Source of the DNA: Acidobacteriota bacterium
GTDB lineage: Bacteria; Acidobacteriota; Terriglobia; UBA7540
NCBI GenBank assembly: GCA_021780055.1
Contig: JAJXZM010000274.1
Span: 1-9,641, forward strand
Direction of reading: 5' to 3'
Length of the DNA stretch: 9,641 nt
Shown: one piece after another, positions 2,285 to 8,951 of the stretch
Position numbering within the stretch: the stretch's first letter is position 1
Layout: each line of letters opens with the position of its first letter
Translations under genes and position numbers: made by a program
Notes under the pieces: model-generated
The model's input: only the letters and a program-made list of their open reading frames with translations
What the model was told of the DNA's origin: nothing
Databases searched by the model: none

Positions 2285-2938
2285 TCAACGAGCAAGGCTT
2301 ACTGAATCCGCGATCTCCTTCAACAAATCAGTACTTACGAACTGCTGTTGGTCATTGTCCGTGCGTTTGAAGATCACCACCTGGCCGGAGCGTCCCGTGG
2401 GCAGCAACACCGCATAAATCGGACCTGTAACACTCTCTGTGGTTCTGGGCGGATCGTAGTGCTCATACACCTGATTGAGATAGAGATCCAACACTTCAAG
2501 GCCATTGCGGTTTCGAAACACTTTCTGACGCGCAACCCCGGGGCAATGAACACTGCCCTCGGGCCCGTCCGCGTCGCAGCCAAGCCTGACTACATTGATG
2601 GCGAATTCCTTTAGTGACGTTTGGGAGTATGGGTCCATCGAGTAACCGGCGCGGTCTGCAAAATCAATATCGATCAGCCAGGGGGTATCGGGCTTTTTCA
2701 TCAAAGCAAAGATAAATCCGAACTTGGCGTTCACATGAGCGTCCAGCAGAAAATCGCCCGGGTAACTCATTTCAAACGGAACGCCTGGATGGCGGTAAGT
2801 CTTCCACCCGGCCGGCAACTGAGAGTCCATCGCCTGCTGCGCCGAACCGGGCCCAACGGCCGAATGGTCCGCTACCGGCCAGATCAGGCTGAATAGCAGC
2901 AGCGGCAACAGAATTCTCCTCAATGATGGGAAAGGCAT
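2285..2938 (-). CDS. Secreted protein of unknown function, possibly PsbP/Mog1-like fold
   Basis: A 217-residue protein I cannot assign to a named family. The start at 2938 is set by a clear GGAGG located 7 bases before the ATG and by the signal peptide that begins there; the frame stays open upstream to 3112, but that stretch has no signal and no family features. Residues 1-8 are basic (R7, R8), residues 9-21 are very hydrophobic, and cleavage is plausible near A27 or A36. The mature part opens with GWKTYRHPGVPFEMSYPGDF. A W-x-x-Y start followed by F-x-x-x-Y-P is common in PsbP/Mog1-like lipid- or envelope-associated domains, so this is a possible fold only. Two cysteines, C121 and C132, flank a short acidic loop and could form a disulfide after export. 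The gene is divergent from tatA and converges with the RraA-like gene. The signal lacks a twin-arginine F-L-K motif, so Sec export is more likely than Tat. Confidence 0.7.
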   Translation of the reverse strand: MPFPSLRRILLPLLLFSLIWPVADHSAVGPGSAQQAMDSQLPAGWKTYRHPGVPFEMSYPGDFLLDAHVNAKFGFIFALMKKPDTPWLIDIDFADRAGYSMDPYSQTSLKEFAINVVRLGCDADGPEGSVHCPGVARQKVFRNRNGLEVLDLYLNQVYEHYDPPRTTESVTGPIYAVLLPTGRSGQVVIFKRTDNDQQQFVSTDLLKEIADSVSLAR

Positions 2939-3061
2939 TTCTTTGCCTCCAAACGAATGAAATCTTACAACGGCAATGGCGGCTTTGAAATGTCCCGGCA
3001 AAACTTTTCTGTGGCCGCCTAACAATAGGAACCTTTCCTTCGGTTTTGAGGTGGGTGGGGA

Positions 3062-3067
3062 TATAAT
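3062..3067 (+). promoter_or_regulatory. Candidate -10 element upstream of tatA
   Basis: A perfect TATAAT hexamer lies 43 bases before the tatA start codon in the divergent intergenic space. No good -35 hexamer is found at 16-18 bases upstream (best is TTCGGT), and the extended TG is absent, so this is a candidate based on the -10 alone. Its position would give a leader of roughly 35-40 bases that includes the GGGAGG ribosome site. Confidence 0.35.
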
Positions 3068-3110
3068 GAGGCAGGCGGGGGAAAAGCAGTTTGCCGCCGG
3101 GAGGAATATC

Positions 3111-3290
3111 ATGGATGGATTGTTGGAACCAACTCATCTTTTTTTCATTTTGCTGATCGTTCTTATTATTTTTGGACCCGGAAAATTGCCTGAGCTGGGC
3201 CGGGGGCTTGGTAAGGGAATTCGGGAATTTAAGGGAGCTCTCAAAGGGGTCACTGAAGAGGTCAAGGACACTGGCAACAAGGCCAGTTGA
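3111..3290 (+). CDS. tatA: Sec-independent twin-arginine translocase subunit TatA/TatE
   Basis: Pore-forming TatA/E subunit of the twin-arginine translocase, which moves folded proteins across the inner membrane together with TatB/TatC. The 59-residue protein shows the classic order: a short polar N-terminus with E6, one transmembrane helix (about 9-22), the hinge F-G-P-G-K-L-P, then an amphipathic helix [17 protein letters not shown] and a charged tail ([11 protein letters not shown]). The length is at the short end for TatA, as in many non-proteobacterial TatA proteins. [10 protein letters not shown] is diagnostic of the family; TatA rather than TatB is favoured by the short tail. The ATG at 3111 is preceded by GGGAGG at a good distance. 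The open frame begins upstream at 2976, but that stretch is out of character. tatB and tatC are not adjacent: this is an isolated tat gene, so the other components must be elsewhere. Confidence 0.92.
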
Positions 3291-5548: not shown

Positions 5549-6850
5549 ATGGCAGAAGTAGAGAATTTGGAACGCACTGCTGGCGCTTCCGTACCGGTTC
5601 GAGTGGATGTTCAATTGCGCGATCTGTTGATGAAGCCAGGAACAGCGCCGAAAACAACACCTCCTCTGCAACCGAAATCCCCCTCCGCGGAAGCGCAGGC
5701 CCTCACGCTGCCGGAGCCCGTTTACCCACAGCACCCGCTTCCAGAAGGCGTTGACTACACCGAGAAGCAATATCACAAGATCAACACCATGCGGGCCCTG
5801 AAGTGCTGGGCGATGCCCTTTGTAAAGTCCCGTTTTCGCGCCTCGGAGTTGCGGCCGATCATTGCCTATCTCTTCACCGAGTTCAAGTGCAACGTTGATT
5901 GCCACTACTGCTGGTCGTATAACAACGACGTGAAGGGCATGACGGAAGACGTGGCACGCCGATCCATCGACTGGCTGGAATCCACCGGATGCCGCGTGCT
6001 GGCGCTGATGGGTGGCGAACCTTTGCTGCGGCCGGGTTACGTCCACAAGGTCGTTTACTATGCCGCCAAGAAAGGCTTTTACGTCTACCTGCCCACCAAT
6101 GGCCGGCTGATGCGTCCCGAAGTGATTGACCAGATAGGCGACGCAGGAATCGGAATCGTGAACCTGGCCATCGATTGCGTGGAAGAGAAGCCGGGCCTGC
6201 CCAAGGCGCTGAACCGCATCCGGCCCTACTTCGATTACCTGATCAAGCGCCAGCGGCACTACGGTTACACGGTAATGATGAACATCAACATCACCCACAT
6301 CAATCAGGACGATGTAAAGGAACTCACCGAAATCGCGCGCGCAAACGGCATCGCTACCGACTATCACCTGAACGAAGCGCCGATGCTTGAGCAGGACCAC
6401 TTTAAGCACCTGGATGACAACACCACCTATCTGACGCCGGACGACTTCCCGAAGGTGGAGGCGCTGCTCGATTATCTGATCGACAAGAGCCGTCAGGGCT
6501 ACAAGATGGCTAACCCGCAGACGCACATGCACGACATGAAGAAGTTGATGCGAGGCAAGGTGAAACCCTGGCCGTGCCGGGCGGGGCAGAACAACCTGAT
6601 TATCCGGCCCGAGGGCACGCTGGCGCCTTGTTTCCCCATGTATTCCGCTACCTACGACTGGGGGACAGTCGGGAACCACAAATTCGACGTCCACCAACTC
6701 GACGAGATGAAGAAGACGTGCTCGACCACATGCCTCTCCACCTGCAACTACATCTTGTCGCACTGCTATGACAGCTCGCGAGTAATTCGCTGGGGCCTGA
6801 AGCAGGCGTTTCGCGGGTTCCGCGGCGTGAGCGGACACTTCGAAGATTAG
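5549..6850 (+). CDS. Radical SAM protein with SPASM/twitch-like C-terminal domain, function unknown
   Basis: A 433-residue radical S-adenosylmethionine enzyme. The SAM-cluster motif C114-N-V-D-C118-H-Y-C121 follows the strand IIAYLFTEFK; GGEP at 155-158 is the SAM amino-group motif; LPTNGRLM (181-188) and VNLAID (204-209) mark later barrel strands. The C-terminus carries C343-x12-G-x4-C361, fitting the first half of a SPASM domain, followed by C391, C395, C399 and C406 at spacings that do not match the canonical CX2CX5CX3C. This suggests one or two auxiliary Fe-S clusters in a variant arrangement. Residues 1-65 are proline/alanine-rich and probably disordered, then a conserved-looking segment (66-105) precedes the barrel. 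SPASM enzymes often modify peptides or mature enzymes, but no precursor or partner gene is adjacent. GAAAGGAG supports the start. It is a single-gene unit closed by the terminator at 6916. Class is sure; substrate is unknown. Confidence 0.9.
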   Translation: MAEVENLERTAGASVPVRVDVQLRDLLMKPGTAPKTTPPLQPKSPSAEAQALTLPEPVYPQHPLPEGVDYTEKQYHKINTMRALKCWAMPFVKSRFRASELRPIIAYLFTEFKCNVDCHYCWSYNNDVKGMTEDVARRSIDWLESTGCRVLALMGGEPLLRPGYVHKVVYYAAKKGFYVYLPTNGRLMRPEVIDQIGDAGIGIVNLAIDCVEEKPGLPKALNRIRPYFDYLIKRQRHYGYTVMMNINITHINQDDVKELTEIARANGIATDYHLNEAPMLEQDHFKHLDDNTTYLTPDDFPKVEALLDYLIDKSRQGYKMANPQTHMHDMKKLMRGKVKPWPCRAGQNNLIIRPEGTLAPCFPMYSATYDWGTVGNHKFDVHQLDEMKKTCSTTCLSTCNYILSHCYDSSRVIRWGLKQAFRGFRGVSGHFED

Positions 6851-6915: not shown

Positions 6916-6948
6916 AAGGCCGGTTACCCATCAACCGGCCTTTTCTTT
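6916..6948 (+). terminator. Intrinsic terminator of the radical SAM gene
   Basis: A perfect 10-bp stem, AAGGCCGGTT (6916-6925) and AACCGGCCTT (6933-6942), with a 7-base loop, is followed by a T-rich run (TTTTCTTT including the stem end). It lies 66 bases after the radical SAM stop codon. On the minus strand the stem is not followed by a T-run, so it acts mainly on the plus strand; it might still help end the minus-strand gene whose stop is at 6980. Confidence 0.87.
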
Positions 6949-6979: not shown

Positions 6980-7546
6980 CTATTTCTGCCTGCGTTCAAG
7001 CGCAGCGCGCATTTCGGGTTCGGGATCGATGCCCAGCGCGTCAGCAACGCGGTTGATGTAGTTGAAATAACCGATGACTTCAACCGCGTCCAGGATGTCG
7101 CGGTCGCTGAGGCCATGTTTGCGAAGGATGTCCAAGTCCTGTTTGCGGACGGCAGCGGGGGTTCGCGTGACAAGATCGGCAAATTTAGCCAGGGCTTTGC
7201 TGCGCGGCGGTAGCTTGGCGTAGAGATAGTTGTGCCTGACGCGCTCGGCCAGCCCGGGGTCACCACTTTGGGCACGGAGATCCTCTCCGTGAGACTCGGT
7301 TCAATAGAAGCAATTATTGGCACGAGATACAACGACGGCCAACAACTCGCGTTCGGCGCGGGAAAGCCCTGAAGGAGCACGCATGGTGGCCAGATAGAGG
7401 CCCATCGATGCCTGCAGGATCTTCGGGTTCAGGCTCTGGACCTTCAGAATGTTGAAGACTTTTCCTGCCCGCTTGACGGCCTTCGCGTATTCCTTCTTCA
7501 ACTCGCCGGTCGCAACCTCAGGTTCTACCGTTTTGATCCATGCCAT
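6980..7546 (-). CDS. AhpD-like peroxidase-related selenoprotein (carboxymuconolactone decarboxylase fold), TGA read as Sec
   Basis: Predicted cytoplasmic thiol/selenol redox protein of the AhpD-like, peroxidase-related family. Translation starts at the ATG at 7546 behind a strong GGAGG and meets an in-frame TGA (7303-7301) as codon 82. The same frame then runs 106 more codons to a TAG. Before the TGA: MAWIKTVEPEVATGEL, then NILKVQSLNP, then LSRAERELLAVVVSRANNCFY. After it: TESHGEDLRAQSGD, then LAKFADLVTRTPAAV, then LSDRDILDAVEVIGYFNYINRVADALG. Both halves are family-typical and make one full-length 188-residue protein. With Sec at 82 the active site reads C79-F-Y-U82-x3-H86, matching AhpD's CxxCxxxH. 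A SECIS-like hairpin follows immediately. Conventional gene finding would split or truncate this gene. The alternative, a nonsense mutation (TGC to TGA is one change), is less likely given the exact position and hairpin. Its own reductant and substrate are unknown; it is divergent from the glycosidase-like gene. Confidence 0.85.
7273..7291 (-). promoter_or_regulatory. Bacterial SECIS-like hairpin just downstream of the in-frame TGA
   Basis: On the minus strand, CACGGAGA and TCTCCGTG pair perfectly (8 bp) around a GGA loop; with the last A-T pair open the loop is AGGAT on 7 bp. The loop begins 17 bases after the TGA (16 in the open form). Known bacterial SECIS elements have a short apical loop with a G in its first two positions, about 16-37 bases from the UGA, on a stem of several base pairs; this fits. 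It lies inside the coding sequence, as bacterial SECIS elements must, and would bind SelB carrying Sec-tRNA. Confidence 0.75.
7301..7303 (-). other. In-frame TGA, predicted selenocysteine codon 82
   Basis: The codon sits three residues after C79 (C-F-Y-U), at the second position of the CxxC redox motif of AhpD-like proteins, with the expected histidine four residues later. No frame change is needed to continue. Confidence 0.8.
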
Positions 7547-7658
7547 TGTTGCCTCCGATCCGCCTTGTTAGCACAAGCCTCCACGGACCGGGGTCTTTTT
7601 AAACCACGCACCGCAGGCCGCCAGGGTCTGCACCACAGGCGCATCTACCAACAGCAGG

Positions 7659-7664: not shown

Positions 7665-7706
7665 ACAGACTCTGATTTCTCATGTCTTGTACCATTGGGG
7701 GCATCT

Positions 7707-8951
7707 ATGAGGGTTCGGCTTTGCGTTGCTTTGAGCGTGTTCCTGCTGGCTGGCGTGACAATCCCGGTAAGGGCGCAGAGTTTCGTAGAGCCGCCGCAGG
7801 TCTCTCCGCGCGATTTTGCTCTGATGGCCTGGGACCAGTCGCCTTCTGATCCGCACCAGCTTGATCTGATGCGGCAAGCCGGGCTGAACATTTCGGGATT
7901 TTGCCGTCCTGGAGAGCTTGACCTCGTGCAGGCCGCAAAACTGTCTTGTTTTGTTACAGACGACCGGGTGAACGGTTACGACTTGACCGAGATGCCGGGC
8001 GAAAAAGAACTTAGGGAGAAGATCGACGCCTTAGTTGAAGAGGTCCGGAACCATCCTGCGGCATTGGGGTTTTTCCTCTACGACGAGCCGAATACCGCGC
8101 TGATGCCGGGCCTGTCCAAGGTCGCGTTGATGCTGCGGAAAGCGATGCCGGGATCCTGGGCTTATGTCAACGTGCTGCCCAATTACGCGACACCATCGCA
8201 ATTGGGAGCACCAAACTATGATGCATATGTGCAAAAGTTCGTGGACCAGGTCCACCCGCCGCTGCTCAGTTCCGACAATTATTCGCTGTTTAACGGTGAA
8301 ATGCTGGGCCGCTTCTACACCAACCTCGCAACCATCCGGCACGCATCGCAAAAGGCCGGCATCCCGTTCTGGAACGTGATCCTTGCCAACAGCCACTTCA
8401 GTTACATGGAACCGAGTGACGCCACACTGCGCTTGCAGGCCTACAGCACCATTGCTTACGGCGGGCGTGGCATTGAGTACTTCACCTATTTTTCTCCGAA
8501 GGTGGGCAACTTCAGGCTGGCTCCGGTGGACCAGTTCGGCCACCGCACGGAAACCTGGTACATGCTGAGGCGGCTGAACGACCAGATTCGCACACTGGCG
8601 CCCTGGTTGATCAAGCTGCACAGCACGGGCGTTTACCATTCCGCTCCCCTGCCGGAAGGGGCCGCGCCCATCGAAAAGAGCGAATTGGTTAAGCAGGTGC
8701 GGGCAACGACCTTTCAGAGCCCTCCCGTCGCCCCCGAATACCTGATTGGCGAGTTCCGGGACGGCGAGGGCCATCCCTTCCTGATGATCGTTAACAAATC
8801 CCTGAGATTTTCAATGCGCTACGCGATCGACCTTAAAGATCAGAACCAGCACCTTGTTCTCGTTTCCCCATACACAGGCCAACTTGTTTCCTTTGCTGGA
8901 GAAATGAACTGGCTGGCGCCCGGCGCCGGCGCGCTGCTGGAAGTCAAGTAG
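7707..8951 (+). CDS. Secreted TIM-barrel protein, putative glycoside hydrolase
   Basis: A 414-residue exported protein that I read as a (beta/alpha)8-barrel glycosidase-like enzyme; no GH family can be named with confidence. Residues 1-23 are a Sec signal peptide (R2, R4, hydrophobic 5-19, cleavage after V-R-A). The barrel begins at FALMAWDQSP (37-46). GFFLYDEPN (121-129) ends a strand with acidic D126-E127, where clan-A glycosidases carry the acid/base glutamate. LLSSDNYSLF (186-195) and YGGRGIEYFTYFSP (251-264) are further strand ends, and E257 is a candidate nucleophile. W281-x-M285-type residues and the PWLIKL helix follow. From about 345 a beta-rich C-terminal domain is likely (LIGEFRDGEGHPFLMIVN and on to the end). 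ATG 7707 is preferred over the TTG at 7695: the signal peptide starts there and GGGGG lies before it. Likely role: extracytoplasmic carbohydrate breakdown. Fold is likely; activity is inferred. Confidence 0.7.
   Translation: MRVRLCVALSVFLLAGVTIPVRAQSFVEPPQVSPRDFALMAWDQSPSDPHQLDLMRQAGLNISGFCRPGELDLVQAAKLSCFVTDDRVNGYDLTEMPGEKELREKIDALVEEVRNHPAALGFFLYDEPNTALMPGLSKVALMLRKAMPGSWAYVNVLPNYATPSQLGAPNYDAYVQKFVDQVHPPLLSSDNYSLFNGEMLGRFYTNLATIRHASQKAGIPFWNVILANSHFSYMEPSDATLRLQAYSTIAYGGRGIEYFTYFSPKVGNFRLAPVDQFGHRTETWYMLRRLNDQIRTLAPWLIKLHSTGVYHSAPLPEGAAPIEKSELVKQVRATTFQSPPVAPEYLIGEFRDGEGHPFLMIVNKSLRFSMRYAIDLKDQNQHLVLVSPYTGQLVSFAGEMNWLAPGAGALLEVK

What the first reader, a model, noticed from the sequence alone, without database searches (positions are those of the whole stretch)
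6980..7546. Probable unannotated selenoprotein: AhpD-like protein with C-x-x-Sec active site
The minus-strand frame starting at 7546 stops at a TGA after 81 codons, but the same frame continues 106 codons with sequence typical of the second half of peroxidase-related AhpD-like proteins. The TGA replaces exactly the second cysteine of the CxxCxxxH redox motif (C79-F-Y-U82-x3-H86). No frameshift is involved. AhpD-like proteins with Sec are known from metagenomic selenoproteome surveys, so the family precedent exists; this copy would be mis-split by ordinary gene callers. The prediction is testable and changes the annotation from two fragments or a pseudogene to a working selenol enzyme.
Basis: partly seen in the sequence, partly recalled or inferred. 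Interest (0 to 1): 0.9.

Follow-up and report, generated by a model that had tools for sequence, protein, structure and literature searches.

The report
Acidobacterial AhpD-like selenoprotein gene
A bacterium, probably an acidobacterium, carries a gene for a peroxidase-like enzyme whose apparent early stop codon most likely encodes the rare amino acid selenocysteine; the prediction holds up, but this selenoprotein family was already known.

Summary
The read-through is a full-length TIGR01926 AhpD-like protein (171.9 bits, cut-off 81.8) with UGA at the second Cys of CxxCxxxH. At that codon 116 of 118 distinct related loci read TGA, 2 Cys. E67, C79, Y81 and H86 are kept in at least 115 of 116 TGA relatives. 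In 33 relatives' genomes SelB is found in 32, SelA 30, SelD 31, clear tRNA-Sec 28. The window's own genome is not held, so its machinery is untested. A hairpin that fits the bacterial SECIS model lies 17 nt after UGA. A 2026 review already lists TIGR01926 CxxU selenoproteins, so this is a new member of a known kind. One possible novelty: the family seems to use two overlapping, mutually exclusive SECIS registers (loop about 17 or about 24 nt after UGA), the same Leu-Arg codons serving as 3' arm in one and 5' arm in the other. Three searches found no description of this.

The parts
6980..7546 (-). AhpD-like (TIGR01926) selenoprotein gene, 188 residues with Sec at 82
7301..7303 (-). UGA predicted to be read as selenocysteine (U82)
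   Evidence: TGA in 116 of 118 distinct related loci
7310..7312 (-). codon of C79, presumed resolving Cys
   Evidence: C in 116 of 116 TGA relatives; role inferred
7289..7291 (-). codon of H86 of the CxxUxxxH motif; also the start of the hairpin
   Evidence: H in 116 of 116 TGA relatives
7346..7348 (-). codon of E67, spaced like the relay Glu of AhpD proteins
   Evidence: E in 115 of 116 TGA relatives; spacing compared with PMC3141380
7273..7291 (-). SECIS-type hairpin CACGGAGA-GGA-TCTCCGTG, 8 bp, loop begins 17 nt after UGA
   Evidence: function not tested
7552..7556 (-). GGAGG, probable ribosome-binding site, 5 nt before the ATG
   Evidence: sequence
6916..6942 (-). 11-bp hairpin after the stop codon, possible terminator
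   Evidence: fold; the terminator scan did not list it

Best explanation
The locus is one intact gene, with opposite-strand neighbours on both sides, for an AhpD-like selenoprotein of the TIGR01926 family, in what is probably an acidobacterium. Translation starts at 7546, the UGA at 7303-7301 is decoded as Sec with the help of SelB bound to the hairpin at 7291-7273, and a 188-residue all-helical protein results. E67, C79, Y81, U82 and H86 take the places of the five-residue AhpD proton relay. U82 is expected to act as a selenolate on a (hydro)peroxide and then to form a selenenylsulfide with C79, which a dithiol donor reduces. Shown computationally: frame, family, codon conservation, hairpin, machinery in relatives. 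Inferred: Sec incorporation in this organism, the peroxide chemistry, and that a donor exists; substrate and reductant are unknown.
For: Frame and family. TGA opposite U82 in 63 of 65 loci and 116 of 118 distinct loci. Of the 120 listed database homologs (252 passed, 120 shown), 37 are C-terminal fragments that align only from residue 84 or 86 on, 1 is an N-terminal fragment that ends at residue 81, and 57 show W there, best read as TGA translated by code 4 (their DNA is not held). E67 115/116, C79, Y81, H86 116/116. Machinery in 33 genomes with a TGA copy: SelB 32, SelA 30, SelD 31, tRNA-Sec above 55 bits 28. Hairpin: 0.01 of synonymous shuffles as good for the window; 43 of 114 genes with the 17-register stem against 11.3 expected and 70 of 114 with the 24-register stem against 41.9; 1 of 20 each in non-Sec homologs. 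AlphaFold model pLDDT 96.7 with Cys at 82; TM-scores by query length 0.84-0.88 to chains of 6k40, 3c1l, 2oyo, 2pfx and 2prr.
Against: The window's own genome is not held, so its sel genes are untested. Alone, the window's hairpin is not striking: dinucleotide shuffles z -1.44, 19 of 200 as good, and MFE against synonymous shuffles 0.097. The averaged energy profile is lower 45-75 nt before the UGA than at it. SelB is common in the phylum sample anyway: 15 of 20 genomes without a P0001 match have it. Of the 12 genomes nearest by LipA, 4 lack SelB. Some TGA genomes miss a machinery gene: G284 SelB and SelA, G359 and G158 SelA, G252 and G420 SelD, five the clear tRNA-Sec; these are mostly fragmented assemblies. 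The relatives were gathered with P0001 as query, which favours its own kin.
Confidence: 0.95

Rival explanations
1. Pseudogene or sequencing error: a Cys codon of an ordinary CxxC AhpD-like protein has mutated to, or been misread as, TGA.
For: The family has many Cys members (22 of 82 listed homologs that cover the site; 19 of 20 no-stop homologs fetched).
Against: The same TGA is in 116 of 118 distinct loci. In the six closest relatives third positions differ most often in both halves (44-53 of 80 codons before, 50-67 of 100 after the site) and no further stop appears.
Confidence: 0.02
2. The organism reads TGA as Trp (code 4 or similar), as the database entries with W imply.
For: 57 of 82 covering database homologs show W.
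Against: The RraA gene of the window ends on a TGA, and reading it through would add 67 residues. Other homologs have Cys at the site. Most genomes with the TGA carry SelB, SelA, SelD and tRNA-Sec.
Confidence: 0.01
3. The TGA is a working stop: an 81-residue protein is made, and the second half separately from a later start.
For: Databases split it so (37 C-terminal fragments and 1 N-terminal one among 120 listed).
Against: The cut falls inside the active site, between C79 and H86. There is no conserved start after the site: residue 83 is T 55, I 31, V 17, M 7, L 5, S 1 of 116, and ACC in the window. Synonymous sites of the hairpin are conserved.
Confidence: 0.02

Closest known systems
AhpD-like selenoprotein with CxxU (TIGR01926 in PMC13188914; COG2128 with the same example accession MCB9421940.1 in PMC9312934; AhpD-like 1, COG2128, in PMC2398784; AhpD-like COG2128 in PMC1794560; AhpD-like CXXU in PMC1088965)
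   Same: Same NCBI family as the 2026 review's entry, same CxxU motif, bacterial SECIS-type hairpin after UGA. Only passages of these papers were read.
   Different: A new sequence, nearest relatives 67-69% identical in the genomes searched and up to 75% in listed full-length proteins. The 2026 review does not contain the word Acidobacteri; for the 2005 and 2008 papers that word was not searched. Acidobacteria as users of Sec are known (3 families, 4 selenoproteins; Occallatibacter riparius, 3).
Cys-type peroxidase-related proteins of known structure (6k40, 3c1l, 2oyo, 2pfx, 2prr)
   Same: Fold over nearly the whole length, TM 0.84-0.88, 31-42% identity; sequence matches.
   Different: Cys where the window has UGA, in the three alignments printed.
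NF041238 AhpD_rel_CFYUT (seleno)protein
   Same: A related profile (81.2 bits over residues 2-182) whose name carries the motif CFYUT that the window also has.
   Different: 357 positions and a cut-off of 175 bits, which the window's protein does not reach.
AhpD of M. tuberculosis type (TIGR00777)
   Same: Spacing of Glu, Cys, Cys, His of the proton relay (PMC3141380, passages).
   Different: 21.6 bits against a cut-off of 191.95; none of the window genes scanned against Pfam matched a peroxiredoxin family.

Membership tests
TIGR01926 peroxidase-related enzyme | profile score above the curated cut-off | tested here: met
   171.9 bits, cut-off 81.8, profile 1-178 of 178
AhpD-like selenoprotein (CxxU) | in-frame UGA at the second Cys of CxxC, with Cys homologs | tested here: met
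AhpD-like selenoprotein (CxxU) | bacterial SECIS hairpin after UGA (3-9 nt loop, 4-16 bp stem, G in the first two loop bases, 16-37 nt from UGA; PMC13188914, passages) | tested here: met
   8 bp, GGA loop, 17 nt; its function is not tested
AhpD-like selenoprotein (CxxU) | selA, selB, selC, selD in the host genome | not testable with these tools
   window genome not held; in 33 relatives with TGA: selA 30, selB 32, tRNA-Sec above 55 bits 28, selD 31
AhpD-like selenoprotein (CxxU) | selenium in the protein | not testable with these tools
   needs 75Se labelling or mass spectrometry
NF041238 AhpD_rel_CFYUT | score above 175 bits | tested here: not met
   81.2 bits
AhpD (TIGR00777) | score above 191.95 bits | tested here: not met
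   21.6 bits

The most novel reading that the evidence does not exclude
Within one selenoprotein family the SECIS element has moved. In the window's lineage the Leu-Arg codons (CTCCGT) are the 3' arm of a hairpin whose loop starts about 17 nt after UGA; in 66 of 117 genes read, among them most of those named as Planctomycetota, Verrucomicrobiota, Fidelibacterota or Chloroflexota, the same codons are the 5' arm of a hairpin whose loop starts about 24 nt after UGA. The two structures exclude each other, and 6 of 117 genes can form both and may be transitional. The SECIS can thus re-register in place without loss of Sec decoding.
Probability: 0.5. Interest if true: 0.5.

Novelty: new member of a known kind. 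Interest (0 to 1): 0.35.

Why it matters
It corrects a gene that ordinary callers split or translate wrongly (37 C-terminal fragments, 1 N-terminal fragment and 57 W entries among 120 listed homologs) and shows TGA-bearing AhpD-like genes to be common in the phylum sample around an acidobacterial genome (all 30 loci fetched read TGA). If the two SECIS registers are real, they give a tractable case for how SelB tolerates, and evolution relocates, a recoding signal inside a coding sequence.

Tried and rejected
Viral or phage origin: no relative in viral contigs or in phages. Rfam on the window at gathering score: nothing. tRNA in the window: none. Conserved neighbourhood: among the loci fetched, only L019 has a second window gene relative beside the Sec gene (a 30% NagA match). 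NF041238 and TIGR00777 membership: cut-offs not met. Averaged folding energy as SECIS evidence: inconclusive. Host placement by LipA: the first threshold was too strict and gave nothing in 396 genomes; repeated looser, best 68% (G139, G091). G293, near by the Sec gene, is not near by LipA, so the host is placed only at phylum level, by names that NCBI gives to some homologs. The count of register changes on a tree that contained the hairpin codons (7 changes for the 17 label, 4 forced) was replaced by one without those columns (4 changes, 2 forced). The stem thresholds and the 55-bit tRNA-Sec line were chosen after seeing the data; tRNA matches of 43-53 bits occur also in genomes without SelB. 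Three loci with N (L048, L053, L058) were dropped. The control used uniform synonymous codons, the gene's own usage. My searches for a prior description of two SECIS registers were only, in open-access text; figures are not held, and the Sargasso paper draws an AhpD-like SECIS (legend seen) that I could not see.

Full report
Observation. The minus-strand frame from 7546 runs 81 codons to a TGA at 7303-7301 and on for 106 codons to a TAG at 6982-6980. A GGAGG lies 5 nt before the ATG.

Family. The read-through protein matches TIGR01926 (peroxidase-related enzyme) over profile positions 1-178 of 178 with 171.9 bits against a cut-off of 81.8, and Pfam CMD over residues 41-93. It does not reach the cut-offs of NF041238 (AhpD_rel_CFYUT, 81.2 of 175 bits) or TIGR00777 (AhpD, 21.6 of 191.95). 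PDB relatives 2pfx, 3c1l, 2oyo, 6k40 and 2prr match by sequence. An AlphaFold model, with Cys at 82, from 41 sequences has mean pLDDT 96.7, and Foldseek's first 16 matches are chains of 6k40, 3c1l, 2oyo, 2pfx and 2prr with TM-scores (query length) of 0.84-0.88 and 31-42% identity.

The codon. A scan of genome contigs gave 66 loci; 65 cover residue 82, with TGA in 63, TGC in L063 and TGT in L065. With the loci the count, window left out, is TGA 117, TGC 1, TGT 1 of 119 covering loci; L007 and L075 are the same gene of one genome, which leaves 116 TGA among 118 distinct loci (L066 and the 8 radical-SAM loci L099-L106 do not cover the site). All were found with P0001 as query, so they lean towards its own kin. 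More distant homologs are often Cys: of 20 that I fetched because one search listed them without a stop (not all such rows), 19 have Cys and 1 Ser. Of 120 listed database proteins, 82 cover the site: 57 W, 22 C, 2 S, 1 gap; 37 are C-terminal fragments (36 align from residue 84, 1 from 86) and 1 (P0114) is an N-terminal fragment that stops at residue 81. W is best read as TGA translated by code 4; the DNA of those entries is not held, so this is inference. TGA is not a general sense codon in the window: the RraA gene ends on one.

Selection. Against the six closest relatives (L097, L098, L067, L068, L107, L069; no gaps allowed), third positions differ most often in both halves: 44-53 of 80 codons before the site against 13-28 at the other two positions, and 50-67 of 100 codons after it against 24-34; no further stop appears. 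Over 116 TGA relatives E67 is kept in 115, and C79, Y81 and H86 in 116. Their spacing equals that of the proton relay Glu36, Cys48, Tyr50, Cys51, His55 of PA0269 and Glu118, Cys130, His132, Cys133, His137 of M. tuberculosis AhpD (PMC3141380, passages read). That the second Cys is the peroxide-reactive one is recalled, not read.

Machinery. The window's genome is not held. Among 18 genomes of loci, SelB exceeds its cut-off in 15 of 16 with TGA and 0 of 2 with Cys; the sixteenth (G014) has a match over positions 2-571 at 189.2 bits, below the cut-off of 242.25. I then took 33 genomes with a TGA copy (the codon itself was read in 32; G236's was not fetched): SelB 32 (not G284), SelA 30 (not G284, G359, G158), SelD 31 (not G252, G420), tRNA-Sec above 55 bits 28 (not G044, G284, G271, G248, G252). 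SelB is in 15 of 20 genomes without a match (those that one search listed, of 288) and in 2 of 10 hand-picked genomes whose listed matches had no stop. The three genomes nearest by the Sec gene, G421, G293 and G420 (67-69%), have SelB, SelA and a tRNA-Sec of 62 bits; SelD was not found in G420. Of 21 genomes near by two other window genes, 17 have SelB: 9 of 9 by the radical-SAM gene, 8 of 12 by LipA.

SECIS. After the UGA the window can form CACGGAGA-GGA-TCTCCGTG at 7291-7273: 8 bp, loop of 3 that begins with G, 17 nt from the UGA, inside the bacterial model of PMC13188914 (passages read). Alone it is weak against dinucleotide shuffles (z -1.44, 19 of 200 as good) and moderate against synonymous shuffles (0.01 for the hairpin score, 0.097 for MFE). 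The family view is stronger. An open scan of the model over 93 genes put the best loop at 17 nt in 16 and at 24 or 25 nt in 66, and 40 of 93 beat 95% of their synonymous shuffles. With more loci, of 117 TGA genes (window included) 37 have a stem of at least 6 bp with the loop 16-18 nt after UGA, 66 a stem of at least 5 bp with the loop 23-26 nt after UGA, 6 both, 8 neither. Over 114 genes without N, synonymous shuffles expect 11.3 and 41.9 such stems; 43 and 70 are seen. In 20 non-Sec homologs each occurs once, against 0.7 and 3.8 expected with uniform codons. In the 37 genes of the 17 register synonymous sites hardly vary: third base of the His-86 codon C in 35, of codon 88 G in 37, of the Leu-90 codon C in 34, of the Arg-91 codon T in 33, while loop base 20 takes all four letters. 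Pairs hold in 88.9% of cells against 30-58% with the partner slid by 1-3 bases, but there are only 2 double-change cells, and the group was selected for pairing. In the 32 of 66 genes of the 24 register with a loop of 6 at 24, 97.8% of cells pair, with 16 double-change cells, 9 of them at the outermost pair.

Two registers. In the 17 register CTCCGT is the 3' arm, in the 24 register the 5' arm, so the structures exclude each other; 17-register pairs hold in 55.3% of cells of the 24-register genes, 24-register pairs in 39.0% of cells of the 17-register genes. On a tree built without the hairpin's columns the label needs 4 changes, of which well-supported branches force 2, against about 30.6 in shuffles; the window's well-supported sets of 4 and 5 rows are all 17-register. 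The phylum sample around G001 holds both registers (L067-L096). Of the six genes that can form both, four could do so by chance. This part is computational only and its thresholds were set after looking.

Known or new. AhpD-like CXXU selenoproteins were reported from the Sargasso Sea in 2005, with a SECIS figure of which I saw the legend (PMC1088965, passages; its family accession was not seen). AhpD-like COG2128 selenoproteins are in a 2006 survey (PMC1794560, passages) and in GOS 2008 (PMC2398784, passages). A 2026 review lists AhpD-like, TIGR01926, CxxU with an accession that a 2022 review gives under COG2128 (PMC13188914 and PMC9312934, passages). The gene is a new member, probably acidobacterial, of that kind. 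Searches found no description of the two registers; that is a small search.

Noticed in passing
window 5549-6850 (+); G499:C80, G496:C58, G215:C10: The radical-SAM gene that faces the Sec gene has 61-69% relatives in 22 of 162 genomes of one class; in 3 of the 9 of these tested for SelB it lies about 5-9 kb from selB on the same contig, in the other 6 the two are on different contigs.
   Followed up: partly
G452:C615:7-1224: The radical-SAM relative in G452 (68%) is reported with one TGA inside the match; Sec, frameshift or error not decided.
   Followed up: no
P0031, P0117: Two listed homologs carry Ser at the Sec/Cys position, as does L135 (AGC).
   Followed up: no
window 6980-7546 (-), residues 15-181: Sub-threshold match to PA26/sestrin (25.2 bits, cut-off 29.4) and Foldseek matches to Sestrin2: the family resembles part of sestrins.
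   Followed up: no
window 7695-8951 (+) and 2285-3112 (-): Two ORFs of 418 and 275 aa with no Pfam match up to E 0.1.
   Followed up: no
L006, L009, L011, L012, L021, L042: Six Sec genes can form both SECIS registers, possible intermediates; in four of them chance alone could give the 17-register stem.
   Followed up: partly
P0114 and P0129: An 81% relative of the N-terminal half of the Sec protein and an 81% relative of the window's NagA both lie on contigs of 11,727 bases, so perhaps on one contig with shared gene order.
   Followed up: no
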